Shown in pieces: positions 1 through 15,994 of a stretch of 64,000 nt of DNA (positions are counted from its first letter, which is position 1; the number at the start of each line of letters is the position of its first letter). Under the pieces are notes generated by a model, which had not been told where the DNA came from, did not search any database, and saw only the letters and a list, made by a program, of their open reading frames with translations. Position numbers and translations under genes: made by a program. The DNA comes from Paraburkholderia sp. BL10I2N1 (lineage in GTDB: Bacteria; Pseudomonadota; Gammaproteobacteria; Burkholderiales; Burkholderiaceae): assembly GCF_004361815.1 (NCBI RefSeq), contig NZ_SNWA01000001.1, forward strand, positions 620,001 to 684,000, read 5' to 3'.

Positions 1-2
1 GT

Positions 3-566: not shown

Positions 567-844
567 GCGAAAACGCGTGTCCTATGCGCCGTTCGACCTG
601 AGTGGCCGGCGACTTTCCGGGAACGGCCAATCAGCGACATTCGAAACGCCGCTTCCGGACGACCTGTCCCGCGTTCGCTGGCAGGTACCTGCCCAGCTGT
701 AACCAGTATCACCGAATGCGGGACAGGCTGCCTATATCGCAAGATTGTCGGTCACGAACCGCGTCTCATCCGTGCTCGCGCCGGACAGCCAATTCACGTC
801 AAGCCACCTTCTAAAGCCCGACGCCATACAAGGGTTGCAGGTTC

Positions 845-1021
845 CTACTTGCCGCCGATGCCGACCTTGCCGCGCCCGACCTTTCGATGCGGCGCACAGG
901 GGCGCAGCCTCTTCCTGGAGCTAGCCGTCAACGTGACGTGCTCCGTAGGGTAGCGGGTCGTCCTGTGCAGCGCGGCCTGATAGGCGGAATGGCCCGGATC
1001 GATGCGCTTGATAGCTGACAT
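845..1021 (-). CDS. small basic hypothetical protein (58 aa)
   Basis: An ATG at 1021 on the minus strand follows a strong GAGGAGG ribosome binding site at about 1030-1036. The product begins MSAIKRIDPGHSAYQ and is rich in Arg and Lys toward the C terminus. I do not recognise it. The good ribosome binding site is the main reason for listing it; no homology can be asserted, and it may be the remnant of a longer gene near the insertion sequence. Confidence 0.35.
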   Translation of the reverse strand: MSAIKRIDPGHSAYQAALHRTTRYPTEHVTLTASSRKRLRPCAPHRKVGRGKVGIGGK

Positions 1022-1066
1022 GACTGACACCTCCTCAGAGGATTCTAGTCCGAAACGGCACGGCGG

Positions 1067-1174
1067 TTATGCCGCCTTCCTGAACATGCTGTAGTCGAAG
1101 TCCGCGACCCGGCGCTCGGCAAACCCGGGCGTGCGCTTGACGATTGCCATGCGCTCGTTCCGGTGGGTGCCCAT
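1067..1174 (-). CDS. tiny ORF (35 aa), doubtful
   Basis: Short minus-strand frame just upstream of the 58-aa ORF, ending FDYSMFRKAA then TAA. There is no convincing ribosome binding site for the first ATG; an internal ATG giving MAIVKRTPGFAERRV is also possible. Not recognised. It could be the end of a gene disrupted long ago. Confidence 0.2.
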   Translation of the reverse strand: MGTHRNERMAIVKRTPGFAERRVADFDYSMFRKAA

Positions 1175-1248
1175 AGGTAACTATTCGAGCGCGCGGCGCA
1201 CACGCGCGGGATTCTAGCCTTCAATCCAATCGGGACTCGTGCGCCCCC

Positions 1249-1257
1249 CTTCCGGGG
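1249..1257. repeat. 9-bp target site duplication, left copy
   Basis: CTTCCGGGG here is repeated exactly at 2764-2772, directly outside both ends of the insertion sequence. A 9-bp duplication is usual for this transposase family, so the insertion is probably recent. Confidence 0.9.
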
Positions 1258-2763
1258 CTCAGGATTACCCACAACTTTCCAGAAAGAGCGCTTGTAAACG
1301 GGCTCAGACGATGTTAACTTGCGAGCAAGTCCCGTAAAACCACACGCCATTGCCTTCTGTAGACGACGCCCATAACCATGACTGGGCCGACACCGAATTC
1401 GGTGCGGCCAATCTGGGCGATGCTCGTTTGACGAGTCGGCTGGTCGCGCTGGCAAGGCGGCTTGCGACCAGTCCCGACTGCTCCTTTCCGCGCTCGCTTG
1501 ATGCCGCCGAGCTCAAGGCTGCCTATCGTTTCTTCGACAACGAACAGGTCGATACCGACGGTGTTCTTGCCCCGCACGTCGAGCAAACGCTGCAGCGCAT
1601 GACACAGGTCCCGGTCGTGCTGGCAGTGCAGGACACGACCGAATTCAATCTGACGCACCTCGAGGCCACTGAAGGACTGGGCTACGGCACCGGCAACACA
1701 TCGCGTGGCTTCATGCTGCACAGCTTGCTGGCCGTGACGCCGGAGGGCTTGCCGCTCGGCGTGCTGGGCATGAAGACCTGGGCACGCCCGGACGCGAACC
1801 TGGGCAAGAAGAAGCAGCGCAAGCAGCGCCCGATCGAAGACAAGGAGAGTGCCAAATGGCTCGAAGGAGTCGAGCATCTGGCCGCGCTCAAGGCGCGCTG
1901 CCCCGATACCCGGATAGTGGCAACAGGGGACCGGGAAAGCGACGTCTACGAGGTGTTTGTGGCCGAGCGGCCGGCGGGCGTCGACTGGCTCGTGCGTGCG
2001 GCATGGGATCGCCGCACCGCCCACCCGGAGCGGTATCTGTGGGACACCGTGACCGCGACAGCGCCCATGGGCGAGACCGAACTGCAGGTGCCGGCGCAGC
2101 GCAACGCGGCGAAGCGCACTGCACGTCTGACGGTGCGGTGCACGCCAGTTCAGCTGCGCGCGCCGAAGCGACCTTCGCCCGGGCTCGCCGGAGTCGAAGT
2201 GTTTGCCATTCACGCACTCGAAACCGACCCGCCGGCAGGCGTTGAGCCACTCGAATGGATGCTGCTGAGTTCCGTGCCGACCATCACGCTGGAGGACGCG
2301 CTCGAGCGACTTGGCTGGTATGCGCGGCGGTGGACGATCGAGTCGTGGCACCGTGTGCTCAAGAGCGGATGCAGCATTGAAAAGCGTCAGTTCGGCAATC
2401 TGGACCGGTTCGTCCGGTCAACCGCGTTATTTGCCGTGATCGCCTGGCGCATCATGTACGCGACGTTGCTGGGCCGCGTCGATCCCCATCTGTCCTGCGC
2501 GGTGCTTCTGCAGCCCGACGAGTGGCGTGCGCTCTATAGCCGCGCTAACCGCACCTCCAAACCGCCGCCTCAAACACCCTCGCTCGGCGAAGTGGTGTTG
2601 TGGATTGCAAAACTCGGCGGCTATCTGAACCGCAAGCACGACCACCCACCCGGCCCCACCGTGATGTGGCGTGGCTTCCTGGTCCTGCATGAAATCACCG
2701 AGATGTATCGCATCTTCAGGCAGGACGAATAGATCGCTCAGCCGAAATGTGGGTAATCCTGAG
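1258..2763 (+). mobile_element. complete IS4-family insertion sequence, 1506 bp
   Basis: The element is bounded by perfect 16-bp terminal inverted repeats, CTCAGGATTACCCACA at 1258-1273 and its reverse complement at 2748-2763, with identical 9-bp flanks (CTTCCGGGG). It holds a single uninterrupted transposase gene. Intact ends, intact gene and an exact target duplication indicate a recent, possibly still mobile copy. It sits between unannotated segments and does not obviously interrupt a recognisable gene; the left flank has a C-run and the right flank a G-run. Confidence 0.93.
1350..2732 (+). CDS. IS4-family transposase
   Basis: A 460-residue protein of the IS4 family, resembling the IS50/Tn5-like branch. 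The N-terminal part (WADTEFGAANLGDARL, residues about 10-25) matches the transposase DNA-binding domain; the catalytic part has an early Asp in AVQDTTEF (about residue 92), a second Asp near ATGDRESDV (about 190) and a Glu in the YARRWTIESWH motif (about 330), which fits a DDE core with the YREK-like signature. The only usable start in frame is TTG at 1350, because a stop lies at 1335-1337. It makes DNA breaks at the inverted repeats and moves the element. Confidence 0.93.
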   Translation: MPSVDDAHNHDWADTEFGAANLGDARLTSRLVALARRLATSPDCSFPRSLDAAELKAAYRFFDNEQVDTDGVLAPHVEQTLQRMTQVPVVLAVQDTTEFNLTHLEATEGLGYGTGNTSRGFMLHSLLAVTPEGLPLGVLGMKTWARPDANLGKKKQRKQRPIEDKESAKWLEGVEHLAALKARCPDTRIVATGDRESDVYEVFVAERPAGVDWLVRAAWDRRTAHPERYLWDTVTATAPMGETELQVPAQRNAAKRTARLTVRCTPVQLRAPKRPSPGLAGVEVFAIHALETDPPAGVEPLEWMLLSSVPTITLEDALERLGWYARRWTIESWHRVLKSGCSIEKRQFGNLDRFVRSTALFAVIAWRIMYATLLGRVDPHLSCAVLLQPDEWRALYSRANRTSKPPPQTPSLGEVVLWIAKLGGYLNRKHDHPPGPTVMWRGFLVLHEITEMYRIFRQDE

Positions 2764-2772
2764 CTTCCGGGG
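2748..2772. repeat. right inverted repeat and right target duplication
   Basis: TGTGGGTAATCCTGAG (2748-2763) is the exact inverse of the left end, followed by the second copy of CTTCCGGGG (2764-2772). Confidence 0.9.
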
Positions 2773-3530
2773 GGGGGGCGGGACACGGCATGCCGTCGGG
2801 GCGAAAAAATCCGAATGTCGACGGGCACCCCATGCAACCCATCCTCTCGGCCATCGATCGCGACATCGCGAGCGTGCTGGACAGTCGGCTGATGCCGAAC
2901 CGGCCGCAGCACCCCGGCCGCGCATGAAGGGGCGGCTTCAGAATTCCGACAATAAAGCACGCTAAGCGGTGGATGCGGGTTGCCGGCCGCGCGTTCGTGT
3001 CCGCCTCTTGTCGGCTTTGCGGAACCGCCAGCCTATTCGAGCGATCGAGCGATCGGCCCGGACGAGACTCTCTCTCGGTCTCGACGCGCCGAAGTGGACG
3101 ATGGTGGATGATCTGACTTACGTTGTTCAGGCGAACCATCTGCCATGGAGCAACGGTGCGCGGGCAATCTGTGGTTCCTCGATTGGGCCACGTTCGCCGT
3201 GACGCAAGGACAGTTGCTCGCCAAGGTCCCTTGCTCCTGTGAGCCGATAGGCGTTCGGATTCGGCAAGATCTCAAATGTCGGCCAGAAAATTACAGAAGA
3301 GATGTTGCTTTATCTGGAAATGCCTCTATTTTTAAAATGGCCGATCGGCCGGTGATGGTTCCGAGCATTCATCGTGCTTGGAACACCCATGAGTGCGTCT
3401 CTGTTGCGACGACTACAAAGGAGCGCGCGTCTTACCTGTAATAACTCTCGTCCAGTTCAAGGTTATGACGCTGGAGCGTTAGGGTGTGGGTGACTGTTTA
3501 ACACATCTACCACCGGCCAGGAGACACGAC
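2773..3530. other. stretch without a recognisable gene
   Basis: About 750 bases between the insertion sequence and the cyanophycin island. It begins with a G-run and contains short open frames on both strands (for example 3145-3441 plus), none with a convincing ribosome binding site or a recognisable product. I see no RNA gene or terminator. Confidence 0.5.
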
Positions 3531-3824
3531 GTGAAGGCACCCTGCAGCATGTCCAGTCAGGTCCTCGCGCTCATCGAGCGCACCAGGTCAGGGCCAAAGA
3601 GAAAGAAGGCTAGTGCTGCTCATCTCGGCAACGCGCTGTCAAGGCGGAGTCGTTTCGTGGCGATGCTGTTCTGCCATCTTGGCCGAGTCCATTCCCTGCA
3701 TGAAAACGAAGGCCCGTCGAGTCACGTTAGTGCTTGCGGCTTCCCGGACAATGCTGGCGTGCACGATCCCCAATTTCGTCTCCTATCTACCTCACAACCG
3801 CATCAGACCAGGCCATGGCCGTAG
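3531..3824 (+). CDS. doubtful ORF upstream of cphA (97 aa)
   Basis: A GTG at 3531 follows a good AGGAGA site at about 3520-3525. The first 30 or so residues (MSSQVLALIERTRSG, then a Lys/Arg-rich segment) look gene-like, but the later part is not. It ends 60 bases before cphA and could be a leader or a decayed gene. Not recognised. Confidence 0.25.
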   Translation: MKAPCSMSSQVLALIERTRSGPKRKKASAAHLGNALSRRSRFVAMLFCHLGRVHSLHENEGPSSHVSACGFPDNAGVHDPQFRLLSTSQPHQTRPWP

Positions 3825-3883
3825 GGACTTCGTCGGCTTTGGAGAGTAATGGCCTGAAACGAGAGCTGCAAGGAGGTCATGAA

Positions 3884-6688
3884 ATGGAAGTCAAGTCAAT
3901 CGTAGCCTATCAAGGACCCAATATTCATGCCCATTTCCCGGTCATTCGATACACCATCGATCTGGGGGTGCTTGAAGAGTGGCCAACCGGGCGCCTCGGC
4001 CAAGGCTTCATCGATTGTCTCCTTGGCTATCTGCCCGGCCTTCGGCAACATGGCTGTTCCTATAAAGCCCCCGGTGGGTTCGTGCGGCGCATGTGCGAAG
4101 GCGAAGGAACGTGGCTGGGCCATGTCATGGAGCACGTAGCGATCGAGCTGCAGAAGGTGGCGGGCTCGGATGTGAGTTTTGGCAAGACGCGCGCCGCCGG
4201 GCCGTGCGGGCATTACGACATAGTCTACGAATACCTGGACGAGGATGTCGGTCGGCAGGCCGGAGACCTTTCCCTGGCTTTGCTCGAGCATCTGTTTCCT
4301 GAAGACCTGAAGCTGAAGCTGAAGCCGGAGCGGAACTCCGATGACGAATTCGACTTTGAACATGAACTGGATGAATTCATCCGTTATGCGCGGAGTTGCG
4401 ACGCGGGGCCTAGCACTGCCGCACTGGTGAGCGCCGCCATGAAGCGCGCGATTCCATGTACGCGCCTAAACCGCGGGAGCCTGATACGGCTCGGCTGCGG
4501 TCGCTTCCAGAAAAGCATTAAGGCTTCGCTCACCAGCGAGACCCGTCAGATCGCAGTAGACCTGGCTTCGGACAAGGGGGAGACCAACCGGATCCTGCGT
4601 GACGCGGGCCTGCCGGTGCCGAGGCAGCGCAAGGTCTATAGCGCCCGCGACGCCGTCCATAGTGCGGAACAGATCGGCTATCCCGTTGTGATCAAGCCAT
4701 TGGACTCTAATCACGGACAGGGAGTATCCGTTCAGGTCACAACCTCGGAGCAGGTGGAGCTCGCTTTTGAGAGGGCTCAGGAGTACAGCGAGGCAGTGCT
4801 CGTCGAAAGCTATATACCGGGGTCTGATTACCGCATGCTGGTCGTCAATGATCAATTGTTGGCAGTTGCCAGACGCATCCCCGCACATGTGTTGGGCGAC
4901 GGCGTTCACACCATCGAGGAGTTGGTGGAAGAGGTCAACAAGGATCCACGCCGGGGTGTGGGGCATGAAAACGTGCTTACCCGCGTGGAGCTCGACGGCA
5001 TGGCAGAACGCTTCCTGGCTGACAAGGGTTATGGTCCCGCGACGGTCCCTGAGCCGGGCGAGATCGTCTACTTGTGCGCCACCGCCAACCTCTCCACCGG
5101 GGGCACCGCCATCGATGTTACCGATAGCGTGCACCCGGACAACCGGGCGATGGCCGTCCGGGCCATCAGGGCCATCGGCCTGGACGTTGGGGGAGCTGAT
5201 TTCATTACCACGGATATCTCCGCGTCATATCGTGAGACCGGCGGGGCCATGTGCGAGGTGAATGCTTGCCCGGGTCTACGGATGCATCTGGCGCCAGCTG
5301 AAGGCATGCCCAGGGACGTTGCCGGACCCATCATCGATATGCTGTTTCCACCCGGTGCTCCCAGCACCATCCCCATTGCCAGCATTACCGGCACCAATGG
5401 CAAGACCACCACCTCGCGCATGCTCGCTCATATCATGAAGGTGGCGGGGTACACGGTGGGTTTGGGCACAACCGATGGCATCTATGTCGACGGGCTGCTG
5501 ACTGTGAAAGGTGACATGACCGGAATGACGTCCGCCCGCATGATTCTTGCGGACCCTGCCGTGGATGCCGCCGTACTGGAAACGGCCCGGGGCGGCCTGC
5601 TGCGGCGGGGTCTGGGCTATCCCGAATGCAGCGTGGCGGGCTGCCTCAATGTGACCGCCGATCACCTGGGCCTGCGCGGGGTCGAAACCGTGGAGCAAAT
5701 GGCGGAGGTCAAGCGCATCGTCATCGAGGTGGCGAAGGAGATGGCCGTCCTCAACGCTGACGACGCCTTGTGCCTGAAGATGGCGGATCATAGCCACGCA
5801 AACCGCCTGGGCTACGTGACCATGAATGCTGCTCACCCCTTGGTAAATGAGCACGTCCAGGCGGGCGGCGTGGCGGTCGTGCTGGAGGAACAGATAAACG
5901 GCCACATGGTCTGCCTGTGGGACAGCGGTCACCGTTTTCCATTGTTGTGGACTCACGTGATCCCGGCCACGGTGCACGGGCTCGCACTCCACAATGTGCA
6001 GAACGCGATGTTCGCTGCGGCCCTCGCCCACGGCCTCGGGATCGATCTCGAGAGCATCCGCCGTGGTCTACGCACCTTTGACAACACCTTCCTCCAGACC
6101 CCCGGTCGCCTGAACATCTACGATCAGCATCCCTTCAGGGTGATTTTGGACTATGCCCACAACCCCGCGGCCGTGAAAACCATGTGCGGTCTGGTAGACC
6201 GGTTGGGAGCCGAGCGTGCGAAGATCGTTTCGCTGACGGTTCCAGGCGACCGCCGTGACGAGGACATCCTGGAGATCGGGCGTGTCGCGGCGGGACACTT
6301 TGAGCACTACATCTGTCACCGGGACAGTGACTCGCGTGGGCGGGATCACCTTGAAGTGCCGGAAATGCTGCGGGAGTCACTACGCAAGAATGGAGTCGGG
6401 GCAGAGCAGATCGAGGTCATCGCCGATGAACAGACGGCGAATCAGTCGGCGCTCGAAATGGCCGGGCCTGGCGACTTGCTCCTCTTGTTGAGCGAAGACT
6501 ACACCCGTGCCTGGGAGCAGATCGTGCGTTTCAGGCCGAATCCGCAAACAGGGCACGCCATTGACAGTAGGCCGATCCCGGCCAAGATCCGTCTGGACGA
6601 CCTGGGCGGGTTCGAGTGGGACAGTAGTAGCATGGAGATCATCCGTGACGAGCGCGGCGTGCGGTTGGCGCGAGAGATCGAAGACTGA
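3884..6688 (+). CDS. cphA: cyanophycin synthetase
   Basis: Makes cyanophycin, a polymer with a poly-aspartate backbone whose side chains carry arginine, using ATP; a nitrogen and carbon store laid down as cytoplasmic granules. The ATG at 3884 is chosen because an AAGGAGGT site ends 7 bases before it; an open frame extends upstream to 3734 but has no such site. The 934-residue product has the family order: N-terminal domain (MEVKSIVAYQGPNIHAHFP), ATP-grasp domain (about residues 220-490, with VVIKPLDSNHGQGV), and a Mur-ligase-like domain with the P-loop GTNGKTT at about residue 503. It is slightly longer than cyanobacterial CphA. Two cyanophycinase genes lie 2.3 kb downstream on the other strand, so synthesis and breakdown are coupled in one island. 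Confidence 0.95.
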   Translation: MEVKSIVAYQGPNIHAHFPVIRYTIDLGVLEEWPTGRLGQGFIDCLLGYLPGLRQHGCSYKAPGGFVRRMCEGEGTWLGHVMEHVAIELQKVAGSDVSFGKTRAAGPCGHYDIVYEYLDEDVGRQAGDLSLALLEHLFPEDLKLKLKPERNSDDEFDFEHELDEFIRYARSCDAGPSTAALVSAAMKRAIPCTRLNRGSLIRLGCGRFQKSIKASLTSETRQIAVDLASDKGETNRILRDAGLPVPRQRKVYSARDAVHSAEQIGYPVVIKPLDSNHGQGVSVQVTTSEQVELAFERAQEYSEAVLVESYIPGSDYRMLVVNDQLLAVARRIPAHVLGDGVHTIEELVEEVNKDPRRGVGHENVLTRVELDGMAERFLADKGYGPATVPEPGEIVYLCATANLSTGGTAIDVTDSVHPDNRAMAVRAIRAIGLDVGGADFITTDISASYRETGGAMCEVNACPGLRMHLAPAEGMPRDVAGPIIDMLFPPGAPSTIPIASITGTNGKTTTSRMLAHIMKVAGYTVGLGTTDGIYVDGLLTVKGDMTGMTSARMILADPAVDAAVLETARGGLLRRGLGYPECSVAGCLNVTADHLGLRGVETVEQMAEVKRIVIEVAKEMAVLNADDALCLKMADHSHANRLGYVTMNAAHPLVNEHVQAGGVAVVLEEQINGHMVCLWDSGHRFPLLWTHVIPATVHGLALHNVQNAMFAAALAHGLGIDLESIRRGLRTFDNTFLQTPGRLNIYDQHPFRVILDYAHNPAAVKTMCGLVDRLGAERAKIVSLTVPGDRRDEDILEIGRVAAGHFEHYICHRDSDSRGRDHLEVPEMLRESLRKNGVGAEQIEVIADEQTANQSALEMAGPGDLLLLLSEDYTRAWEQIVRFRPNPQTGHAIDSRPIPAKIRLDDLGGFEWDSSSMEIIRDERGVRLAREIED

Positions 6689-6807
6689 ATGAGTTTTCGC
6701 CGTGGTTACGACGATATGCCAGGCGGTCGCAAGCTGACCTGGTGACAGGGCTTCAGGGCGGATGACGCATGAAGTCCATCCTTCATGGAATACCTTGGAG
6801 AGTCAAA

Positions 6808-7164
6808 ATGGATGAGAAACAGAAATTTCTTCTCTACAACGATAACGACGACACGCTGGATGCCTCCTCGAAGCGGAGGATGGCCGTCGAAATCGCCCTG
6901 GACCTGATACGTCATGAAGCAATGTGCGGGTCTTCGCGCAATCCCTTGGATTCTAATCTAAGGCACCTCTCGGACTTTGCCGATTTTATTCAAGAGGCCT
7001 TGAGAGGTGGTGAGCAAGAAGACTTGAGAGGCAGTGAGCGAGAAGACTTGAGAGGCAGTGAGCGAGAAGACCTCAGAGGCAGGGAGCGAGAAGACCTGAG
7101 AGGCAGGGAGAGGGAAGACCTGAGAGGCAGGGAGAGGGAAACGTCGAGAGGCCGGCAGCATTAG
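6808..7164 (+). CDS. small protein with acidic/basic octapeptide repeats
   Basis: A 118-residue protein, started at the ATG at 6808 after a TTGGAGAG site. Residues 1-62 (MDEKQKFLLYNDNDD onward) are unrecognised and probably helical. Residues 63-118 are seven tandem octapeptides: EALRGGEQ, EDLRGSER twice, EDLRGRER three times, then ETSRGRQH. The tail is made almost entirely of Asp, Glu, Arg, Gly and Leu and should be very soluble or helical with alternating charge. It lies between cphA and the transglutaminase-like gene in the same direction, so it is probably co-transcribed. Its composition, rich in acidic residues and Arg, recalls that of cyanophycin; a granule-binding or primer role is only a guess. 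Confidence 0.7.
   Translation: MDEKQKFLLYNDNDDTLDASSKRRMAVEIALDLIRHEAMCGSSRNPLDSNLRHLSDFADFIQEALRGGEQEDLRGSEREDLRGSEREDLRGREREDLRGREREDLRGRERETSRGRQH
6994..7161 (+). repeat. seven 24-bp tandem repeats inside the coding sequence
   Basis: Units start at 6994, 7018, 7042, 7066, 7090, 7114 and 7138. The second and third are identical and the outer ones are degenerate. Each unit encodes eight residues, so copy number can change without breaking the frame. Confidence 0.92.
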
Positions 7165-7314
7165 CGGTCTTGGTGGCTTGTGCGCAGAAGGCGCAGCGCA
7201 CACCATCAAGGAGTTCTATTGCGGTCTCAAGCGCCGCCTCGACAAGACTTGGAGAGAATGGGTCGGGCGTATGCCCGGCCCATGCCTCATCGATCACAAG
7301 GATCCGGGGGATTT

Positions 7315-9039
7315 GTGGTCACCTCGATAAAACCGTTTTTTGCAAAGAACATCACCTCAATAGATAGCAACGAGGAAGATGCTATCTTCGTCGTAGATCC
7401 GGAGCTTGGGGCTCTTGGCAAAATTGACGTTCGGACGGGATTCTTTCAAGGGGTTGTCAACTTCAGGAGCTTCAACGAGTTCAAGGGGGCAGGTGCCATA
7501 TTTATGCGACCGGATGGCATTATAAATTATTCGCGCTTTAATAGAATCTATGCGCTCGGGATAGAAAATGGGATGGTCTATGAAGTTATGGACACCATCA
7601 CAATCGATGAGGCAAAAGATGTTGTCGGCCTATATTGGAAAGGCGGTAGATATTACGTGGCTGACAGTAGCGGGATCTTGTTCATTCTGGATGAGGATCG
7701 GCCAATACGGTCAGTGGATGTGGGCAATAGAATAAACGACATTACCTTGCATGGGGATCGCCTCTTCATATTGAGTGACATTAGTCGGGCCATTTATATA
7801 TACAGTCTTGACGGGGCTCATCTGGCATCGCTGACGACACCCCATGAGGGGGCGTCTGGAATAGCTTCAGTTAAAACATCAGATATAGAAAGATCTGGCA
7901 TCTATATATACTACAATCAGAAAAGTTGGGACGTCTTTGATGATGCAGGCGCGAAGCCGGATGTCGACAACAGTCCAAATATAAAACTCAACAGGAACAT
8001 TTCAGATGGCTTTATAGAGAAACTTGATTATAAAATAATGGGGCTTGGTATGGCGGGAAATTTCGGGCTTTCGGATGGTTACGAAGTGGAATTTTCTTAT
8101 GCCGAAATGCTCAAGCCTGCCCGTGATATTCTGGAAAGGATCAAGGGCGTCAAGATGTGCGTCAGGTTGTCGATTCCGGTCGAGACGCGAAGGCAGAAGG
8201 TGAAATCAGTAAAAATTATTGGAGATGTTCCAGGGGTTATAAGAAGGGACGAAAGCGGCAACGAGATTGCGGAATTCGATTTTAGGGGCGTTGAGCTTGA
8301 TAAAGAACGCCGTTACTTCGGCTACAGTGCCGTAATTGAACTATATGGGATAAGGTTCAAGTTGAGTGCCCCGGATTCAGGCTATCCGGACGAAATTAAG
8401 ACGCGATTTCTTAAGGAAGAGCTCAGGTACGATATGGATAGGCAAGAGTTAAGACGCATTGCTGCGGACCTGATTTCGGCGATCCCGAGAAAAGAGCGCG
8501 GAAATGTAGTCAAGATTGCGAAAACCGTGCGTGAATATGTTTATAGCAGGTTGGGGTACCGCTACAACAACAGGTATACAAGTCCCGTTGAGACCTTGAG
8601 AAGCGGCGAAGGGACTTGCGGAAAGTACATGGAGCTGTTGATAGGATTAATGAGGCTTTGCGGGGTGGCATGCAGGCCGGTCGGGGATTTCAAGGTTCCC
8701 GAGTACAAACTGAGATATGCAGGGGTCAACTCGGTCTGTGCGCCGGATTATGATCATGCGTGGGTAGAGTTCTATGTCCCCGCGGTAGGATGGGTACCTA
8801 TGGAAAGCTCATCGGACAATCTGCCGGAAAGGCACGAAAGGTTTTTTGGCGCTCTGTCGTGGATCTATATAGAAAACAGCAGGACGGAAAAGATGTGCGA
8901 GATATGCAGGCCCGACTCCTGGGAAAAGGTCGGTAACGATCTGATGTATTCGGACTTTTTTGTACCTGACATTCAGATCAAGATTCTCCGGGAGGCCTCG
9001 TTGCACGAGTCGCTCCCTGACGGGATGAATGCGAATTAG
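7315..9039 (+). CDS. beta-propeller-like plus transglutaminase-like protein
   Basis: A 574-residue protein when started at GTG 7315, where codon use switches from GC-rich to AT-rich; the frame stays open to 7180 but the extra part looks non-coding. Residues about 10-250 contain repeated blade-like units (AIFVVDPELGALGKIDV, YYVADSSGILFILDE, LFILSDISRAIYIYS). Residues about 395-510 are a transglutaminase-like (TGc) domain: Cys435 in EGTCGKYMELL, His481 in YDHAWVEFY, then an acidic residue near 497 in PMESSSD, the expected Cys-His-Asp/Glu order of papain-fold enzymes. No signal peptide, so cytoplasmic. ATA, AGA and AGG codons are frequent, unlike the neighbours, which suggests transfer. Its stop overlaps the stop of the convergent cyanophycinase gene. 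The substrate is unknown; an amide or peptide bond, perhaps in cyanophycin, is possible. Confidence 0.75.
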   Translation: MVTSIKPFFAKNITSIDSNEEDAIFVVDPELGALGKIDVRTGFFQGVVNFRSFNEFKGAGAIFMRPDGIINYSRFNRIYALGIENGMVYEVMDTITIDEAKDVVGLYWKGGRYYVADSSGILFILDEDRPIRSVDVGNRINDITLHGDRLFILSDISRAIYIYSLDGAHLASLTTPHEGASGIASVKTSDIERSGIYIYYNQKSWDVFDDAGAKPDVDNSPNIKLNRNISDGFIEKLDYKIMGLGMAGNFGLSDGYEVEFSYAEMLKPARDILERIKGVKMCVRLSIPVETRRQKVKSVKIIGDVPGVIRRDESGNEIAEFDFRGVELDKERRYFGYSAVIELYGIRFKLSAPDSGYPDEIKTRFLKEELRYDMDRQELRRIAADLISAIPRKERGNVVKIAKTVREYVYSRLGYRYNNRYTSPVETLRSGEGTCGKYMELLIGLMRLCGVACRPVGDFKVPEYKLRYAGVNSVCAPDYDHAWVEFYVPAVGWVPMESSSDNLPERHERFFGALSWIYIENSRTEKMCEICRPDSWEKVGNDLMYSDFFVPDIQIKILREASLHESLPDGMNAN

Positions 9040-9860
9040 CGCCTTATGCTCGCCATATGCGCTGTCAAATCATACAGGCTGCCTTCAACCAGTATGTCCA
9101 GGTGCAGGCCAACTACGCTTACTGGGGCATGGCGGCGATCCGGATGTATGGCGGAGTGTTGCAGTTGGGAGGGGTCCACAATGGTGATGCCGCCGCTGCC
9201 CAGGACCTGCAGCCTATGATCCGGACCGATAAAGGCGGCGGTGTCTTCATCCAGGCCGATGCCGATGGCAAGTGGGTTGTAAGTCAAGGCCATGAGCAGA
9301 CGCCCGAGCCGGTCCTGGTGGCGAAAGTGCTGATCGATGATCAATCGCTCGATCAGGCCCAAGCCCGGTGCTAGTTGAACAATATCAGCACGCGGCGTAG
9401 TGCCACTCTCACCGGCCGCAATCATCTGCCCGGGCAGGAACGCTGCGCCAGCGGAGGTGCCGGCCACGTGCATACCCTGTGCATTCCGGATGCGAATTTT
9501 CTGCGCCATTGAAGTACTGCCTAGCGTCTCGGAAAGATGGACCGGGTCGCTCCCCGTGAGGAAAAGCCCGTCGACACTATCGAGCACGTCCAGGTTTCGC
9601 TTCGCCTCGCAGTCGGTTCGGGTCTCAAATTTGAGGGCACTGACCCGATCACCCCCCAGATCGCGGAACGCCCTTTCATAACGGCGGCCGGCGTCCTTGG
9701 TCGCGGAGCCCGTAGAGATGATGCCGATATGCGCGCGGGAGCCGCCGCAAATTTCGATGAAGCGGCGCAGGATGGCAGCGTTTCGTATTAGCCTTCCGTC
9801 GCCACCGATAGGGACGATAAAGCCTCGTGTACCGCCAATGGGCGCCTTTGCACGACTCAA
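9036..9860 (-). CDS. cphB: cyanophycinase paralogue 1 (peptidase S51), altered active site
   Basis: Cyanophycinases cut cyanophycin to beta-Asp-Arg dipeptides in the cytoplasm. This 274-residue protein starts at TTG 9860, supported by a GGAG six bases upstream; no ATG fits. The nucleophile elbow GTSAGA is present, and the segment DQHFRHQDRLGRLL holds the conserved Asp-Gln-His. Two positions differ from the usual enzyme: the TGGDQ loop reads TGSDP, replacing a conserved Gln, and the Arg after DQHF-x-x is Gln. Those residues are kept in the neighbouring paralogue at 10110-10985. This copy may therefore have a changed substrate preference or reduced activity. The stop codon overlaps that of the convergent transglutaminase-like gene by three bases. 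Confidence 0.88.
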   Translation of the reverse strand: MSRAKAPIGGTRGFIVPIGGDGRLIRNAAILRRFIEICGGSRAHIGIISTGSATKDAGRRYERAFRDLGGDRVSALKFETRTDCEAKRNLDVLDSVDGLFLTGSDPVHLSETLGSTSMAQKIRIRNAQGMHVAGTSAGAAFLPGQMIAAGESGTTPRADIVQLAPGLGLIERLIIDQHFRHQDRLGRLLMALTYNPLAIGIGLDEDTAAFIGPDHRLQVLGSGGITIVDPSQLQHSAIHPDRRHAPVSVVGLHLDILVEGSLYDLTAHMASIRR

Positions 9861-10040
9861 CTTTCACTCCGCATAGAGTGCCAAATCGCGAAGTAGCCCC
9901 GGTCTCGTGCAGCCACCACGTAATCCACTTTTCCGCCCCGAGCTTTGTTACTGCCGGGCTCGAATCAGCTGACGCCTTTCCTTTGCGTCGTCCGAGTCAT
10001 TGATGCCCGATATGCGATTTTATATCAGCAAGCGGAACGT

Positions 10041-10076
10041 GAAGCGGGGCAGCGCAGATATGCGCTGCCCCGCTTC
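10041..10076. terminator. strong hairpin between the two cyanophycinase genes
   Basis: A perfect 16-bp stem (arms 10041-10056 and 10061-10076) with a GATA loop, lying 34 bases past the stop of the second cyanophycinase gene. There is no clean T-run directly after it on the minus strand, although TATAAAA follows some 15-20 bases later. It could end transcription of the upstream gene or protect its mRNA. Confidence 0.6.
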
Positions 10077-10109
10077 GTGGATGATCCGACTTTTGCCTCT
10101 TCTAACCGA

Positions 10110-10985
10110 TCATGTCAGAGCGGTGGCGGTCGATTCACCGGGGGCGTAGCTCCTCGCGGACAACGTACCGCCCACCAGGCTATGCGTCCCGAGATGATAC
10201 ATATTGCCATCAACCAGGATATGCAGACGGATCCCGGTCAAGCCTACCGGGTCGTCATGGCGGACGGAATCCGCTGCAGAATTGCGCAGAGTCGACCCGT
10301 CGATGATGGTGACGCCGCCGCTGCCTACCACCTCCAGCGTGTCGTCTGGACCGATGAATGCGGCCGTATCCTCGTCCAGCCCAATGCCCGCCCCAAACGG
10401 GATGGAAGCCACTGCCGTGAGCAGGCGTCCGAGCCGATCCCGCTGGCTGAAGTGTTGGTCGATAACAAAGCGACTGATGAGCCCCAAGCCTGGTGCCAGA
10501 TCGACCATCCCGGCGCGGGGCGTGGCCCCGCTCTTCCCCCCGGCAATCATGGCAGCGGACATGGCGGAGGCACCGGCCGAGGTCCCGGCTACGTGCATGC
10601 CGTGTGCGTTGCGGCTACGAAGCTTGTCCGCCGCAGGTGTGTCGCTCAGCATCTCGGCGAGGCGTATCTGGTCGCCTCCAGTCATGAAGACCCCATCGGC
10701 GCGATCAAGCACCTTCAGGTATCTGTCCGATTCGCAGTCGCGGCGTGTCTTGAATGGCAGGATACTGACTCGGTCAGCCCCGAGATCGCGGAACACCGAC
10801 TCATAGAGATCCCCAGTGTCATCCAGCGAGGAGGCAGTGGGGATGACTGCAATGTGCGCGCGTGACCCACCGCAAAGTTTCACGAAGCGGCGCAGGATAA
10901 CCGGGTTCTGAACCCGATTTTCCGCGCCGCCAATAGGGATAATAAAGCCTCGCGTGGCACCCTTCGGCGATCTTCCGGTACGCAT
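10110..10985 (-). CDS. cphB: cyanophycinase paralogue 2 (peptidase S51)
   Basis: A 291-residue cyanophycinase. The ATG at 10985 is preferred over the GTG at 10994 because GAAGGAG lies eight bases before it, while it would touch the GTG. All expected features are present: FIIPIGG start, MTGGDQ loop, GTSAGAS nucleophile elbow, and DQHFSQRDRLGRLL with its three Arg. This is the copy best suited to break down the polymer made by cphA. It is transcribed in the same direction as paralogue 1 and separated from it by 249 bases with a strong hairpin, so the two may be expressed at different levels. Confidence 0.92.
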   Translation of the reverse strand: MRTGRSPKGATRGFIIPIGGAENRVQNPVILRRFVKLCGGSRAHIAVIPTASSLDDTGDLYESVFRDLGADRVSILPFKTRRDCESDRYLKVLDRADGVFMTGGDQIRLAEMLSDTPAADKLRSRNAHGMHVAGTSAGASAMSAAMIAGGKSGATPRAGMVDLAPGLGLISRFVIDQHFSQRDRLGRLLTAVASIPFGAGIGLDEDTAAFIGPDDTLEVVGSGGVTIIDGSTLRNSAADSVRHDDPVGLTGIRLHILVDGNMYHLGTHSLVGGTLSARSYAPGESTATALT

Positions 10986-12046
10986 ACCATTCACTCCTTC
11001 TCAAAGCTTGACCGGCGACCGTGGCGGTCCGCCCCCCAGGCACGGCAATCGCAGCTATCTGCCCGATGATTCGAGCAGCGCCACGACCATGCTGAATCAG
11101 TCGGGCAGCACCTTCGTGAGCGCTGTGCAGCAACCCGCGAACCTGAGGCCTGCAGCAATACGTGGACAGATTTGCATCCTCCTCGCGTCACACCAGATCT
11201 GCACCCGCCCACTCCTTACAATATTTTAAAGCAAAAAATGCACCAACGTTTTTGTTCGCATGGGTTGGCGCGAACCCTTGGCGCGCATTGCGATTGCGAA
11301 CGAGTTCGCGAGAACTTCGGCCCGCCGCGGAAGCGCATGAATGGCATATGCACGCAGTAAGTGCATATTTGAACCGATGTGGTGCGATGCTGACACATCG
11401 ATTCAAGTATGCAGTGGCGCTTGGCGCCGGAGCGTCGCAATTCGTCGGTTACCAGCCGACGTACCCGGCAGATCGGTTAGACGCCTGCCGCCCGGGCCAA
11501 ATCTTCTGTATCACACTCAGCCGCTGTCCTTTTCGGCAAACGTGACTGTTATTGGGTCGGGGTGCTCCCTCAATATTCTCGGAAGTGGACGTCGGGGTCA
11601 CGGCGCTGGTCGACCATTGCCCGCGATCCGCAACCGCTCGGAAAGGAAAAGCATACTTGCCGGCCGACACAAAGGCGCGGATGACCGTTGAATCCTGGAA
11701 GCTGCCATTGAAGGGGCGCGGGATCCAGTGGCCGGATCGGGTCGTCAACCGCCTATCGCTGAGCTTTCCCTTTGGCGCGCGACGGACAGCCTTTAACGTA
11801 ATTGCGATAACGGGAGATGCTGAATCGTCCGGAACTGGATTTGCCAATACATTCTCGTCGACAGTTGCCCGACGTTCGTCGCAGGCATTTGACTGCCGGG
11901 TTGCGTACGGAATCGTGGAATGACGCACGGACAATCGAGGCGGGAATGCCTCCGGGGGAGACATTACGGAAGCGACTCAGCGAACCGCCCGCAACCCTTC
12001 CGGCCTGCTAGGCTGGAAGCTACCCATGCAAACCATGGAGGGTGAC
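10986..12046. other. about 1 kb without a confident gene
   Basis: Holds several overlapping short frames. The best are 11552-11923 plus (which I cannot identify) and its antisense partner 11449-11964 minus; neither has a clear ribosome binding site. An AT-rich patch at about 11220-11245 could hold the promoter for the cyanophycinase genes. The notable structure is the pair of inverted repeats at 11346-11413, listed separately. Confidence 0.45.
11346..11413. repeat. nested inverted repeats
   Basis: A long imperfect inverted repeat has 20-base arms at 11362-11381 and 11394-11413 with 18 of 20 positions pairing and a 12-base loop. A second perfect 8-bp inverted repeat (ATATGCAC at 11346-11353, GTGCATAT at 11361-11368) shares bases with the first arm, so the two hairpins exclude each other. 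No gene lies within 300 bases downstream on the minus strand except the cyanophycinase gene at 10985. Confidence 0.6.
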
Positions 12047-12235
12047 ATGATGTCCGTCTATGTGGTGAAGACCGGTGAGCAGTTCCTCTGCACCGCCGAG
12101 GACGGCGACATCGGCATGGCATCGGCGATTGAAAATGCCACGTCCTTTCTTTCGTATGAGGAAGCGGAAAAAGCGGCGAACGAGCACGCTGACCCCGGAT
12201 ACGAAATCGTGGCCGTCTGCGTTATCAGACACTGA
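12047..12235 (+). CDS. small acidic hypothetical protein (62 aa)
   Basis: The ATG at 12047 follows GGAGGG with a five-base gap. The product (MMSVYVVKTGEQFLCTAEDGD onward) is acidic, with a helix-like EEAEKAANEHAD segment and a hydrophobic end EIVAVCVIRH. It has no signal peptide or membrane segment. I do not recognise a named family. Its good start signal and normal codon use make it a likely real gene. Confidence 0.6.
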   Translation: MMSVYVVKTGEQFLCTAEDGDIGMASAIENATSFLSYEEAEKAANEHADPGYEIVAVCVIRH

Positions 12236-12237
12236 CG

Positions 12238-12889
12238 CGGAGTCCGCTGCTGGGCGCTCAGCGAGGGAGGCCACTGCCAATTTCGCTGGCGCCATGCGAT
12301 ATGGTGCTCCGGTTGACTGCGTCCAAAATCATCTGCGAATGGGCCTGCGTTGCGCATCGAGATTCGCACGATACGGTCAACGCGCGCGTTGATCGCCTTC
12401 ATCACGGGCTCATGGCCGCGAACGACGAACCGTCTTCCACGAACGCTCTCAGAAGCGCCGCAAGCCCTTCATAACTTGCGGTAGAGAGTGGGGCGCAAGG
12501 AGACCCGTCACCCTGGCTATTCACCCAACACCCCACCGCCGTTTCCGTGGCGTGGTGAATACCGCCACTGGGCGGCCGCCACGGTCTCGCGCGCCTCGTG
12601 AGCACGGCGCTGCTTTGTCTCAGTGCGGCCATGAAACGTCATTCACTCATCCCGTCGATCGGACGTTCAGACGTCGGCTCCGCTCTGCTTCCGCTCATCC
12701 GATTAGCGAAGACGAGCGCACCTTCGTCAGCCATATCGGTCATCTGCGCGGCTTGTGACTTGCGCTCGTTGAATGGCGGGTTTCGGGGTCGTAGTCAACC
12801 GAACCCCTGTCGCTCGTCTTCGTGCAGCGCCTGGGACGACTTCCCAGGTACAGCGGTCATCCATAGGCGTGACCCGATCTCCGCGACGC
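12238..12889. other. 650 bases without a confident gene
   Basis: A minus-strand frame at 12402-12632 has a gene-like stretch (EGLAALLRAFVEDG) but no start signal and may be a remnant. A weak 7-bp stem (12830-12836 with 12842-12848) lies 40 bases past the porin stop and could be its terminator; no T-run follows it. Confidence 0.4.
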
Positions 12890-14035
12890 TCAGAACGCGT
12901 GACGCATGCCCAGCATGACCGCCGTGGTCCCCATTCCTGGCGCGGCTGGCTGGCCGTACGCAATCGTCTGGGTCATATCGCCATGGTTATTGACCCAACC
13001 CACCTGGCCGTAGACCACCGTACTCTTGGACAGGCTGTACTCCGCGCCCCCGGCCACCTCGAGCGATTTGTTGTCCGAGTTGTTCCTGTCCTTCAGGTAG
13101 TAGACGCCGCTGGTGACCTTCAATGCGGCCGACACCTGATAGCCGAGACCGGCTGAATACATGTCAAGGCTCGTGCCACCAAAAGGATTCGATGCGCTCT
13201 TCGCAGCCGGGTTCGCGCCGTTGCTGTACGACGCGGACATCGAGATGCCATTGAGCGTCGTATATTTCGCCCCAAGATACCAGAAGCGGTTGTTCTGGAG
13301 ACCGGTGGCGATGCTCGTCGGACCAGGGTTGGTGTCATGTCCGCTGTAGTACACGGCGGACAGGTTAAGCCCATAGTTCGAGTACTTCAGCACCGCCGAC
13401 TCACGCGTGCCGCCCTGGAAGCTCCCCGCGACGCCGCCGGGCGCGTATTCGAGCAAAGCGCTCGCGCCGTGGAATTTCGGCGACTCATAGACGATCGCAT
13501 TGCTGTCGTACAGCGCGCCGATCGGCCCGTTGGTGCTGGTGCCGGGCCATCCTGCCGCGGTGTTCATGCCGATCCACGCGGTCAGGATGCTGCCGAAGTA
13601 ATTCGCCGAACGAACGTCGGTCTCAGCCATGGCGTAGGCCATCGGCACGATCTGCCGCCCGGCTGTGACGGAGCCGAACGGGCTGGACACGCCGACAGTC
13701 GCCACCTGGTTGAAGATTGCAGTGGCGCCCGCCGTATCGGCGAGACCAAACTTGCCCGTGCCGCTGTCGAACGACCCTTGCAGCCTGAAGTTGACGTGAT
13801 AGCCACCGCCAATATCCTCGGTACCCTTCATGCCCCAGATACTCGAGTAGATACCGCCATCCTTGTAGCGATATACCGCGCCCAGGTTGGGCGCTTTAGG
13901 ATTAAACGAGGCCGCCGCCGTGCTTTGATATAACAGCCCCGAATCGGTGACGCCATACAGCGTCACCGATGATTGCGCGTGCGCCGTGCCGCCGACTGCA
14001 GCCAACGCGGCCGCCGCTACCCATTTCAGTTTCAT
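12890..14035 (-). CDS. Gram-negative outer-membrane porin
   Basis: A 381-residue porin of the Burkholderia/Neisseria general type. It starts with a signal peptide (MKLKWVAAAALAAVGGTAHA, then QSSVTLYG, the typical first strand) and ends with a C-terminal Phe (GMRHAF) used for outer-membrane insertion. A constriction-loop-like segment lies around residues 130-165. It forms trimeric channels for small solutes. It stands 75 bases behind the acyl-CoA ligase gene in the same direction and may be the last gene of that operon, providing outer-membrane uptake of its substrate. A broken relative lies at 20984-21116. Confidence 0.93.
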   Translation of the reverse strand: MKLKWVAAAALAAVGGTAHAQSSVTLYGVTDSGLLYQSTAAASFNPKAPNLGAVYRYKDGGIYSSIWGMKGTEDIGGGYHVNFRLQGSFDSGTGKFGLADTAGATAIFNQVATVGVSSPFGSVTAGRQIVPMAYAMAETDVRSANYFGSILTAWIGMNTAAGWPGTSTNGPIGALYDSNAIVYESPKFHGASALLEYAPGGVAGSFQGGTRESAVLKYSNYGLNLSAVYYSGHDTNPGPTSIATGLQNNRFWYLGAKYTTLNGISMSASYSNGANPAAKSASNPFGGTSLDMYSAGLGYQVSAALKVTSGVYYLKDRNNSDNKSLEVAGGAEYSLSKSTVVYGQVGWVNNHGDMTQTIAYGQPAAPGMGTTAVMLGMRHAF

Positions 14036-14110
14036 TGCGTCTCCAGTTTTATAGCTCTAAAACAACCCGTAACGACCTACGTCCATGCTCAACACAACAG
14101 GCCTGCCCGT

Positions 14111-15751
14111 TCACGAGGGCAGCAGATAGTCCTGAAACTCTTCGCGCAGCTGGTTTTTCAGCACCTTGCCGGTGGCGCCCAGGGGCACCGCATCGACAAA
14201 TACGACGGCGTCGGGGGTCCACCACTTCGCGATTTTTCCTTCGAGGAACGCCAGCAATTGCTCTGCCGTCACCTGTGCATCGGGCACTTTCACGGCGACT
14301 AGCAGCGGCCGCTCATCCCACTTCGGATGCCTTGCCGCAATGCAGGCCGCACTCGCTATCGCGGGGTGCGCCGCTGCAATGTTCTCGATTTCGATCGAGC
14401 TGATCCACTCGCCGCCGGACTTGATCACGTCCTTGCTGCGATCCGTGATCTGCATGAAGCCGTCAGCATCGATGGTCGCGACATCGCCGGTCGGGAACCA
14501 GCCATGCGTATCGGCATCGATGCGCAGCGGGTTGCCGCCCTCGTTCCGGAAGTAGTTGCGCACCACCCATGGGCCGCGCACCAGCAGGTCGCCTGAAGTC
14601 GCGCCATCCCATGGCAGTTCCTGACCGTCTGCGCCGATAATTTTCATATCGACGCCAAACACGGCACGACCTTGCTTCGACTGCACAGCGCAACGGTCTT
14701 CCGGGCGCATCGCCAGGTGTTTCTGTTTCAGTGCGCCGACCGTCCCGAGCGGACTCAGTTCGGTCATGCCCCACGCGTGCAATACCTCAACGCCGTAGCC
14801 ATCCTGAAACCTGTGCAGCATGGCGGGCGGACAGGCTGCGCCGCCAACGACGGTGCGCTTCAGGGTCGAGAACTTCAGGCCGGCCTGTTCGAGGTGGGTC
14901 AGCAGGCCTTGCCATACGGTTGGCACGCCGGCCGCAAATGTCACCTGCTCGGCTTCAAGAAGCTCGTGCAGCGATTCGCCATCCAGCCCGGGACCGGGGA
15001 AAACCAGCTTGGCCCCGACCATGCACGCGACGTACGGGAGGCCCCAGGCGTTGACATGGAACATCGGCACCACCGGCAGGATCACGTCGCGCGCCGAGCA
15101 GTTCAGCGCATCCGGCAAGGCTGCGGCATAGGTGTGCAGCAGCGCCGAGCGATGGGAGTACAGCACGCCCTTCGGGTTTCCCGTCGTGCCCGACGTGTAG
15201 CACAGCGTACAGGCGGAATCCTCGTCGAAGTTCGGCCACGCGTAAGTGGCGGAACTCCGCTCAAGCAGATCCTCGTAGCACAGCAGGTTGACGATGCCAG
15301 TATCCCGCGGCATATGTGCGAGGTCGGTCATCGCGATGAACGCCTTGACCGTCTTGCAGCGGGCGGCAATGGCCTTGACCAGTGGCAGGAACGTCAGGTC
15401 GAAGAACAGATACTGGTCCTCCGCATGGTCGATGATGTAGGCGATCTGGTCTGCGTGCAGGCGCGGATTGATCGTATGCATCACTGCGCCCATGCCGGAT
15501 ATGCTGTAGTACAGCTCCATGTGGCGATAGCCGTTCCACGCCAGCGTGCCGATGCGGTCGGACTCCTTGACGCCGAGACGGGTCAGCGCATTGGCCATCT
15601 GCCGGGCGCGGCGGTGACAGTCGCGGAAGGTGTAGCGATGGATGTCACCCTCGACCCGGCGTGACACGATCTCCGTATCGCCATGATGGCGATCGGCGTG
15701 CACGATCAGCGAGGAAATCAGCAACTGCTTTTGCAGCATCAAACCGTTCAT
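14111..15751 (-). CDS. acyl-CoA ligase (fatty-acid-CoA ligase type)
   Basis: A 546-residue member of the AMP-forming ANL superfamily. Motifs in order: YTSGTTGNPKGV (ATP-binding loop, about residues 187-198), the MTELSP adenine-binding segment, WFPTGDVA (ribose-binding Asp), RSKDVIKSGGEWIS hinge, and the C-terminal catalytic Lys in GATGKVLK. It activates a carboxylic acid with ATP and CoA. The closest type is medium/long-chain fatty-acid ligases such as AlkK; the true substrate is not known. It overlaps the DUF1289 gene by four bases (ATGA), so the two are translationally coupled in the operon. Confidence 0.92.
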   Translation of the reverse strand: MNGLMLQKQLLISSLIVHADRHHGDTEIVSRRVEGDIHRYTFRDCHRRARQMANALTRLGVKESDRIGTLAWNGYRHMELYYSISGMGAVMHTINPRLHADQIAYIIDHAEDQYLFFDLTFLPLVKAIAARCKTVKAFIAMTDLAHMPRDTGIVNLLCYEDLLERSSATYAWPNFDEDSACTLCYTSGTTGNPKGVLYSHRSALLHTYAAALPDALNCSARDVILPVVPMFHVNAWGLPYVACMVGAKLVFPGPGLDGESLHELLEAEQVTFAAGVPTVWQGLLTHLEQAGLKFSTLKRTVVGGAACPPAMLHRFQDGYGVEVLHAWGMTELSPLGTVGALKQKHLAMRPEDRCAVQSKQGRAVFGVDMKIIGADGQELPWDGATSGDLLVRGPWVVRNYFRNEGGNPLRIDADTHGWFPTGDVATIDADGFMQITDRSKDVIKSGGEWISSIEIENIAAAHPAIASAACIAARHPKWDERPLLVAVKVPDAQVTAEQLLAFLEGKIAKWWTPDAVVFVDAVPLGATGKVLKNQLREEFQDYLLPS

Positions 15752-15981
15752 TTCGGCAGTCCATTCTCTGAAACAGGGTCGCAGGGTGACGCCACCGTCG
15801 ACACCCTTAAGCTTCGACGGTGCTCAAGCAGTTCTGCAAGCTCGGCTTTTCGCTGGTCAGTCATCTGGTCCCAGAGGCCGATTTCGACCGGCGTTCTCCA
15901 GCATCCCTGGCATAACTTATCGTTCTGGTCCATCCTGCAAAGATTGATGCAGGGATTTCCAACGGCTTCGCTTGGGGTCAT
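15748..15981 (-). CDS. DUF1289 small Cys-rich protein
   Basis: A 77-residue protein whose N-terminal half carries the DUF1289 signature: NPCINLCRMD, then LCQGCWRT, four Cys in a C-x3-C-x8-C-x2-C pattern that probably binds a metal or an Fe-S cluster, followed by EIGLWDQMTDQRKAEL. Proteins of this kind often sit beside oxidoreductases; the function is not known. It lies 13 bases after the SDR gene and overlaps the ligase gene by four bases. Confidence 0.88.
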   Translation of the reverse strand: MTPSEAVGNPCINLCRMDQNDKLCQGCWRTPVEIGLWDQMTDQRKAELAELLEHRRSLRVSTVASPCDPVSENGLPK

Positions 15982-15994
15982 GCGGCTCTTGCGG

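What the first reader, a model, noticed from the sequence alone, without database searches (positions are those of the whole stretch)
3884..10985. Cyanophycin island with a transglutaminase-like protein and a repeat protein of unknown role
cphA and two cyanophycinase genes bracket two genes not part of the classical set: a 118-aa protein with octapeptide repeats and a 574-aa beta-propeller/transglutaminase-like protein. The papain-fold domain keeps its Cys-His-acid residues. A locus that builds and breaks a polyamide and also carries an intact amide-bond enzyme suggests an extra step such as cross-linking, trimming or attachment of the polymer. Gene order is seen; the function is inference.
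Basis: partly seen in the sequence, partly recalled or inferred. Interest (0 to 1): 0.8.

Follow-up and report, generated by a model that had tools for sequence, protein, structure and literature searches.

The report
Cyanophycin cassette with papain-fold enzyme
A few Paraburkholderia bacteria carry a compact gene cassette for the nitrogen-storage polymer cyanophycin that includes an unstudied papain-fold enzyme and an unusual second cyanophycinase, hinting at an extra, still unknown step in how the polymer is handled.

Summary
cphA (3884-6688), a 118-aa octad-repeat protein (6808-7164), a 574-aa transglutaminase-like protein "TG" (7315-9039) and two cyanophycinase-family genes (9036-9860, 10110-10994) form one cassette. 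The link recurs: of 144 Paraburkholderia genomes the same 7 have CphA and TG. Similarity to diverged copies spans 3853-11000 and stops there. The genes look selected. In a 200-genome family sample 77 other genomes have CphA, none TG. TG keeps Cys435 and His481; the acid is Glu497. New here: CphB1 lacks pocket residues Gln101 and Arg178 in 6 of 6 copies; CphB2 keeps both in 7 of 7. The repeat tails hold 0-1 lysine, which speaks against cross-linking. Best reading: TG is an amide hydrolase serving cyanophycin use; its substrate is unproven. Against: IaaA is present in all six other cassette genomes, the context of distant TGs could not be read, and TG persists where cphB1 has decayed. No structure model was obtained. 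Ten paper searches listed no description of it.

The parts
3853..11000 (.). Cassette: the stretch alike in the diverged copies L042 and L043, whose flanks are unrelated to the window's
   Evidence: blastn between window and loci
3884..6688 (+). cphA, cyanophycin synthetase 1, 934 aa; keeps Cys and HxxEH of the N-domain metal site (spacing 21, not 19)
   Evidence: TIGR02068 1092 bits; motif in 6 of 6 copies; aligned with 7lg5
6808..7164 (+). Repeat protein, 118 aa: conserved 65-residue head and charge-balanced RGxEREDL octad tail (16 Arg, 17 Asp/Glu, no Lys in the window's copy)
   Evidence: repeats
7315..9039 (+). TG, transglutaminase-like (papain-fold) protein, 574 aa, GTG start; Cys435, His481, Glu497
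   Evidence: PF01841 67.9 bits; residues invariant in 23 of 23 aligned sequences; start supported by relatives
9036..9860 (-). cphB1, cyanophycinase-family (S51) hydrolase with Gln101 and Arg178 of the substrate pocket replaced; TTG start
   Evidence: TIGR02069 212.5 bits; alignment with 3en0
10110..10994 (-). cphB2, cyanophycinase with the known catalytic and pocket residues; GTG start
   Evidence: TIGR02069 259.4 bits; alignment with 3en0

Best explanation
The stretch is a self-contained, horizontally spread cyanophycin cassette. CphA makes the polymer and probably its own primers; CphB2 is the ordinary exo-cyanophycinase. TG is most likely a cytoplasmic cysteine hydrolase, not a cross-linker: Cys435 attacks an amide of cyanophycin or of its beta-Asp-Arg products and water releases the acyl group. 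It would serve mobilisation or trimming of the polymer, beside CphB1, a cyanophycinase relative with a changed pocket. The repeat protein, whose tail carries nearly equal Arg and Asp/Glu, probably sits on the granule. Shown: gene order, co-occurrence, catalytic residues, pocket changes, low dN/dS. Inferred: every substrate and role of TG, CphB1 and the repeat protein. My split: TG serves cyanophycin metabolism 0.75; it hydrolyses an amide of the polymer or its products 0.4.
For: The same 7 of 144 genus genomes have CphA and TG, and these 7 also have the repeat protein. The order cphA-repeat-TG-cphB1-cphB2 is complete in 5 of 8 cassette copies. Diverged copies share 3853-11000 and nothing outside. 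dN/dS is below 0.37 for cphA, TG, cphB1 and cphB2 in every pair with finite dS. TG keeps Cys435, His481 and Glu497 in 23 of 23 sequences. TG was found in none of the 77 other CphA-bearing genomes of the 200-genome family sample. CphB1 lost Gln101 and Arg178 in 6 of 6 copies, residues called critical in PMC3235067 (passages). Two TG and two CphA homologs share contig length and source (8,558 and 14,935 bases). The window's genome has no match to IaaA (PF01112) or IadA (TIGR01975).
Against: No activity is shown. IaaA is present in all six other cassette genomes (107 of 144 genus genomes), so TG is not generally needed for the last step. The eleven distant TG homologs (36-44%) have no known context. 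In L044 and L007/L047 TG stays open where cphB1 is a remnant, so the two are not an obligate pair. The cassette moves as a block, so co-occurrence is partly one event inherited together; there are only about three main sequence types. TG and the repeat gene have lower GC3 than their neighbours, so they may be late additions.
Confidence: 0.4

Rival explanations
1. TG is a protease for a protein of the system: it processes the repeat protein, CphA or another granule protein and so controls granule growth or breakdown.
For: The N-terminal half (about residues 1-230) is conserved apart from the catalytic core and looks weakly propeller-like, fit for recognising a protein. The nearest solved relatives include one named 'putative cysteine protease' (3isr, E 0.023). 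The repeat protein is encoded just upstream in 5 of 8 copies.
Against: The two contigs that seem to carry TG and CphA at lower identity (14,935 and 8,558 bases) gave no repeat-protein hit, so the repeat protein is not an obligate partner. In L008 the version beside TG has no repeats.
Confidence: 0.25
2. TG is a transamidase: it cross-links cyanophycin chains or attaches them to the repeat protein.
For: The fold is that of transglutaminases (PF01841) with Cys and His in place; a beta-aspartyl amide is one carbon shorter than a glutamine amide (chemistry, inference).
Against: The repeat tails have 0 or 1 Lys and 0 to 3 Gln; cyanophycin consists of Asp and Arg (PMC10206079), with Lys only as a minor substitute in some enzymes. 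Most bacterial members of the superfamily are held to be hydrolases (recalled, not tested).
Confidence: 0.12
3. Hitchhiker: TG has nothing to do with cyanophycin and merely travels in the same block.
For: Few independent lineages (about three main sequence types); block transfer into unrelated flanks; lower GC3 than its neighbours; distant homologs with no known cph link.
Against: Low dN/dS over long divergence, dS saturated in 9 of 28 TG pairs. TG was not found without CphA in 144 genus genomes or in the 200-genome family sample. TG stays open where cphB1 has decayed.
Confidence: 0.18

Closest known systems
cphA1-cyanophycinase gene clusters, sometimes with iadA or iaaA (PMC10206079; parts 1-2 and discussion read)
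   Same: Synthetase and cyanophycinase side by side; in that paper 81% of genomes with both have them clustered.
   Different: Adds TG, the repeat protein and a second, pocket-altered cyanophycinase; lies in beta-proteobacteria, where that paper finds a cyanophycinase in 2.8% of 903 cphA1 genomes. The word transglutaminase does not occur in its main text.
Tandem cphA pair of other Burkholderiaceae (77 genomes of the family sample)
   Same: Cyanophycin synthetase homologs.
   Different: Two matches per genome at roughly 36-43% identity; TG absent from the sample outside the window's genome.
CphB cyanophycinase of Synechocystis (3en0)
   Same: CphB2 keeps the nine residues checked; CphB1 keeps Ser132, Asp172, Gln173, His174, Arg180, Arg183 and Glu201.
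   Different: CphB1 has Pro or Thr for Gln101 and Gln for Arg178.
Transglutaminase-like superfamily, nearest solved chains 6g49 (TgpA, name recalled) and 3isr
   Same: Core domain with Cys and His.
   Different: Glu497 instead of Asp; about 370 residues of unassigned sequence before the core; E-values only 0.003 and 0.023.
Cyanophycin dipeptide hydrolase (named CphZ in PMC12661447, passages; M14/aspartoacylase-type in PMC10206079 discussion)
   Same: Precedent for an unexpected hydrolase found through cph neighbourhoods.
   Different: Metallopeptidase-type family, not papain-fold. It was not searched for in the window's genome.

Membership tests
Cyanophycin synthetase 1 (CphA1) | Equivalog model TIGR02068 above its cut-off | tested here: met
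   1092 bits, cut-off 850
Cyanophycin synthetase 1 (CphA1) | N-domain metal motif Cx19HxxEH (PMC9262961 passages; kept by about 80% of CphA1s) | tested here: met
   Cys and HxxEH kept in 6 of 6 copies, but with 21 residues between instead of 19
Cyanophycinase CphB (as CphB2) | TIGR02069 cut-off, catalytic Ser132-His174-Glu201 and pocket residues | tested here: met
   259.4 bits; all nine residues checked kept in 7 of 7 copies
Cyanophycinase CphB (as CphB1) | TIGR02069 cut-off and catalytic Ser-His-Glu | tested here: met
   212.5 bits; Ser132, His174, Glu201 kept in 6 of 6 copies
Cyanophycinase CphB (as CphB1) | Pocket residues Gln101 and Arg178, called critical in PMC3235067 (passages) | tested here: not met
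   Pro in 4 and Thr in 2 for Gln101; Gln in 6 of 6 for Arg178. So it is filed as a relative, not as a canonical cyanophycinase.
Transglutaminase-like superfamily (PF01841) | Core domain above cut-off with Cys and His | tested here: met
   67.9 bits, cut-off 23; Cys435 and His481 in 23 of 23
Transglutaminase-like superfamily (PF01841) | Third catalytic residue Asp | tested here: not met
   Glu497 in 23 of 23, opposite Asp of 6g49; a conservative change
Transglutaminase (transamidating enzyme) | Transfer of an acyl group to an amine | not testable with these tools
   Needs an enzyme assay
Beta-propeller (N-terminal half of TG) | Several similar four-stranded blades | tested here: inconclusive
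   Weak Pfam hits in 1 or 2 members each; no self-repeat; structure job failed and tool then switched off
Known beta-Asp-Arg hydrolases (IaaA, IadA) in the window's genome | PF01112 or TIGR01975 match | tested here: not met
   0 matches each in the own genome; PF01112 rang in 5 of 14 controls, E. coli among them, TIGR01975 in 12 of 14 (over cut-off in 1)

The most novel reading that the evidence does not exclude
These bacteria make a chemically edited cyanophycin: TG attacks the beta-Asp-Arg side-chain amide as if it were a glutamine amide and removes or replaces Arg, and CphB1, with its rebuilt pocket, is the hydrolase for the edited units while CphB2 handles the ordinary ones.
Probability: 0.09. 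Interest if true: 0.85.

Novelty: new variant of a known kind. Interest (0 to 1): 0.57.

Why it matters
Cyanophycin breakdown in beta-proteobacteria is poorly understood: PMC10206079 (parts read) finds a recognisable cyanophycinase in about 3% of their cphA1 genomes and says that further enzymes of the pathway remain undiscovered. A conserved cassette that adds a papain-fold enzyme and a pocket-altered cyanophycinase gives two named candidates that can be purified and tested. If TG trims or edits the polymer, it would be a new kind of enzyme for a biopolymer of industrial interest.

Tried and rejected
Primer maker: I asked whether TG replaces the endo-cyanophycinase site of the CphA N-domain; its motif is kept in 6 of 6 copies, so I dropped this. 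Missing last step: the own genome has no match to IaaA or IadA, but IaaA is in all six other cassette genomes, so I keep this only as a remark. Plasmid carriage: no TG match in the plasmid collection of 72,556 records. Viral contigs: 21 pattern matches, none a relative. Wider taxonomy: a TG profile found only the window's own genome among 398 of the phylum. Rfam in 1-16000: none at gathering scores; tRNA genes in the window: none. The genomic context of the eleven distant TG homologs could not be reached with the tools left. The micro-ORF behind cphA was not pursued beyond.

Rows left out: the dN/dS run used one representative per locus, for L008 the upstream repeat-bearing copy of the repeat gene, and no cphA from L006, L007 and L044; one repeat-gene pair with dS 0 and nine TG pairs with saturated dS have no ratio. 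One search aligned 33 of the 66 repeat-protein hits (the window's own among them). One search printed only pieces over 80 bases (window) or 400 bases (between loci).
Full report
What is there. Five genes lie between 3884 and 10994: cphA, a 118-aa repeat protein, a 574-aa transglutaminase-like protein (TG) and, on the other strand, two cyanophycinase-family genes, here called cphB1 and cphB2. cphA passes TIGR02068 at 1092 bits (cut-off 850); cphB1 and cphB2 pass TIGR02069 at 212.5 and 259.4 bits (cut-off 126.6); TG passes PF01841 at 67.9 bits (cut-off 23); the repeat protein matches no Pfam or NCBIfam family. The window lies in a 9.2-Mb, four-contig genome at C1:620001-684000. That the genus is Paraburkholderia follows from the named relatives.

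The link recurs. In 144 genomes of the genus CphA is found in 7 and TG in 7, and they are the same genomes; the repeat protein is found in 9, the same 7 plus two weak matches to the repeats only. Reading the loci, there are 8 cassette copies in 7 genomes. The order cphA, repeat gene, TG, cphB1, cphB2 is complete in 5 of 8 (window, L005, L006, L009, L043; in L006 only the end of cphA is on the contig, the rest on L041). L008 has a repeat-free version of the repeat protein between cphA and TG and a repeat-bearing copy upstream. L007/L047 and L044 are rearranged: a 5' piece of cphA lies between the repeat gene and TG, and cphB1 is reduced to a remnant, yet TG stays open. One genome (G299) has two copies, L043 and L044.

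Controls. In a draw of 200 genomes of the family 78 have CphA; the 77 others have two matches each, at roughly 36-43% identity in the rows listed, side by side in those whose two places I compared by eye. The TG search on 200 family genomes, which by their handles are the same draw, found only the window's genome. In 398 genomes of the phylum a TG profile found only the window's genome. So TG is not a general companion of betaproteobacterial cphA; it belongs to this cassette.

A unit that moves. Between the window and the diverged copies L042 and L043, similarity runs from 3853 to 11000 and then stops; the flanks are unrelated. GC3 is 0.72-0.75 for cphA and 0.67-0.76 for the cphB genes, but 0.54-0.70 for TG and 0.60-0.71 for the repeat gene, so TG and the repeat gene may have joined later from another source (inference). 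Of the 120 CphA homologs listed (of 7999 found), those from P0035 down are 61-66% identical, and those that carry an organism name are called Gammaproteobacteria or Woeseiaceae. Pairwise dN/dS (Nei-Gojobori counting, own script) is 0.121-0.245 for cphA (10 pairs), 0.123-0.575 for the repeat gene (27 of 28 pairs), 0.105-0.363 for TG (19 of 28 pairs; dS saturated in 9), 0.145-0.257 for cphB1 (15 pairs) and 0.102-0.199 for cphB2 (21 pairs). These pairs are not independent; there are about three main sequence types.

TG. The protein search gave 22 homologs covering 94-99% of the query: eleven at 57-96% identity and eleven at 36-44%, one of the latter named as a Victivallales bacterium. Cys435, His481 and Glu497 are invariant in all 23 aligned sequences. 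Against 6g49 (E 0.003) Cys and His align and Glu497 falls at the Asp position. I see no signal peptide (by eye; not tested). Two TG homologs at 57% share contig length and source with two CphA homologs at 70-72% (8,558 and 14,935 bases), so the TG-CphA link probably holds there too; identical length is an indirect sign. For the eleven more distant homologs I have no context.

CphB1 is not canonical. Aligned with the Synechocystis enzyme (3en0; chain index minus 20 gives the published numbers), CphB2 keeps Gln101, Ser132, Asp172, Gln173, His174, Arg178, Arg180, Arg183 and Glu201 in 7 of 7 copies. CphB1 keeps seven of these nine but has Pro (4 copies) or Thr (2 copies) for Gln101 and Gln for Arg178 (6 of 6). 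PMC3235067 (passages read, citing Law et al. 2009) describes Gln101, Asp172, Gln173, Arg178, Arg180 and Arg183 as critical for activity and forming the binding pocket. The changes are shared by three diverged lineages and the gene shows low dN/dS, so CphB1 is probably an active hydrolase with another substrate preference (inference).

Repeat protein. The first 65 residues are strongly conserved; the tail is built of octads such as RGSEREDL, and common lengths in the family are 94, 102, 110 and 118, steps of eight. Named sources of the hits are Paraburkholderia and Caballeronia, plus one Thermoanaerobaculia MAG, which at 85% identity I take for a binning error (inference). In the window the 53-residue tail has 16 Arg against 17 Asp/Glu, no Lys and 2 Gln; across eight copies Lys is 0 or 1. 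It resembles cyanophycin in charge pattern, which suggests binding to the granule (inference).

Pathway completeness. CphA keeps Cys and HxxEH of the primer-making site described in PMC9262961 (passages read), with spacing 21 instead of 19. The window's genome shows no match to IaaA (PF01112) or IadA (TIGR01975); the first rang in 5 of 14 control genomes, E. coli among them, the second in 12 of 14 (over the cut-off in 1). It has a strong NifH-family match on contig C3 (431 bits), so it is probably a nitrogen fixer (inference). IaaA is in 107 of 144 genus genomes, including all six other cassette genomes, so a missing last step filled by TG is at most a feature of this genome. The M14-type cyanophycin dipeptide hydrolase (PMC10206079, discussion read) was not searched for.

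Literature. Ten searches, combining cyanophycin with transglutaminase, Paraburkholderia, gene cluster, nodulation, granule-associated protein, Lentisphaera, CphZ or Burkholderia/cphA/cphB, and two on cyanophycinase structure and ATP-grasp neighbourhoods, listed no paper that by title and start of abstract describes this cassette; the library lacks most subscription papers. PMC10206079 was read in parts and searched for words. PMC7522526, PMC12661447, PMC3235067, PMC11915815, PMC4431377 and PMC9262961 were seen as passages; the others only as listings.

Verdict. The function stays inferred. I favour amide hydrolysis in cyanophycin use over cross-linking, and I regard the altered CphB1 as the most useful new clue.

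Noticed in passing
6689-6745 (+): An 18-codon ORF starts directly behind the cphA stop (TGA ATG) and stays open with the same end in 7 of 8 loci examined, absent in L008; several of its changes alter residues, so coding is not shown.
   Followed up: partly
7179-7202 (+): A short hairpin (TGTGCGC / GCGCACA) between the repeat gene and TG; L009 seems to keep it with a paired T-A to C-G change (seen by eye in the alignment).
   Followed up: no
10041-10076: A strong GC-rich palindrome between cphB2 and cphB1, present in the window, L005 and L006 and missing in L009 and L043.
   Followed up: no
1244-2777: An insertion sequence beside the cassette: a Tn5-type transposase ORF at 1350-2732 (PF14706, PF02281) between inverted repeats.
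   Followed up: no
L007 and L044: In these rearranged copies the end of cphA (about the last 20 residues) is read in another frame, and an extra 5' piece of cphA, about 245 codons, sits in front of TG.
   Followed up: partly
G000:C3:156928-157740: A NifH-family gene (PF00142, 431 bits) in the window's genome on another contig; two of the named cassette species, P. tuberum and P. podalyriae, are legume nodulators (recalled).
   Followed up: no
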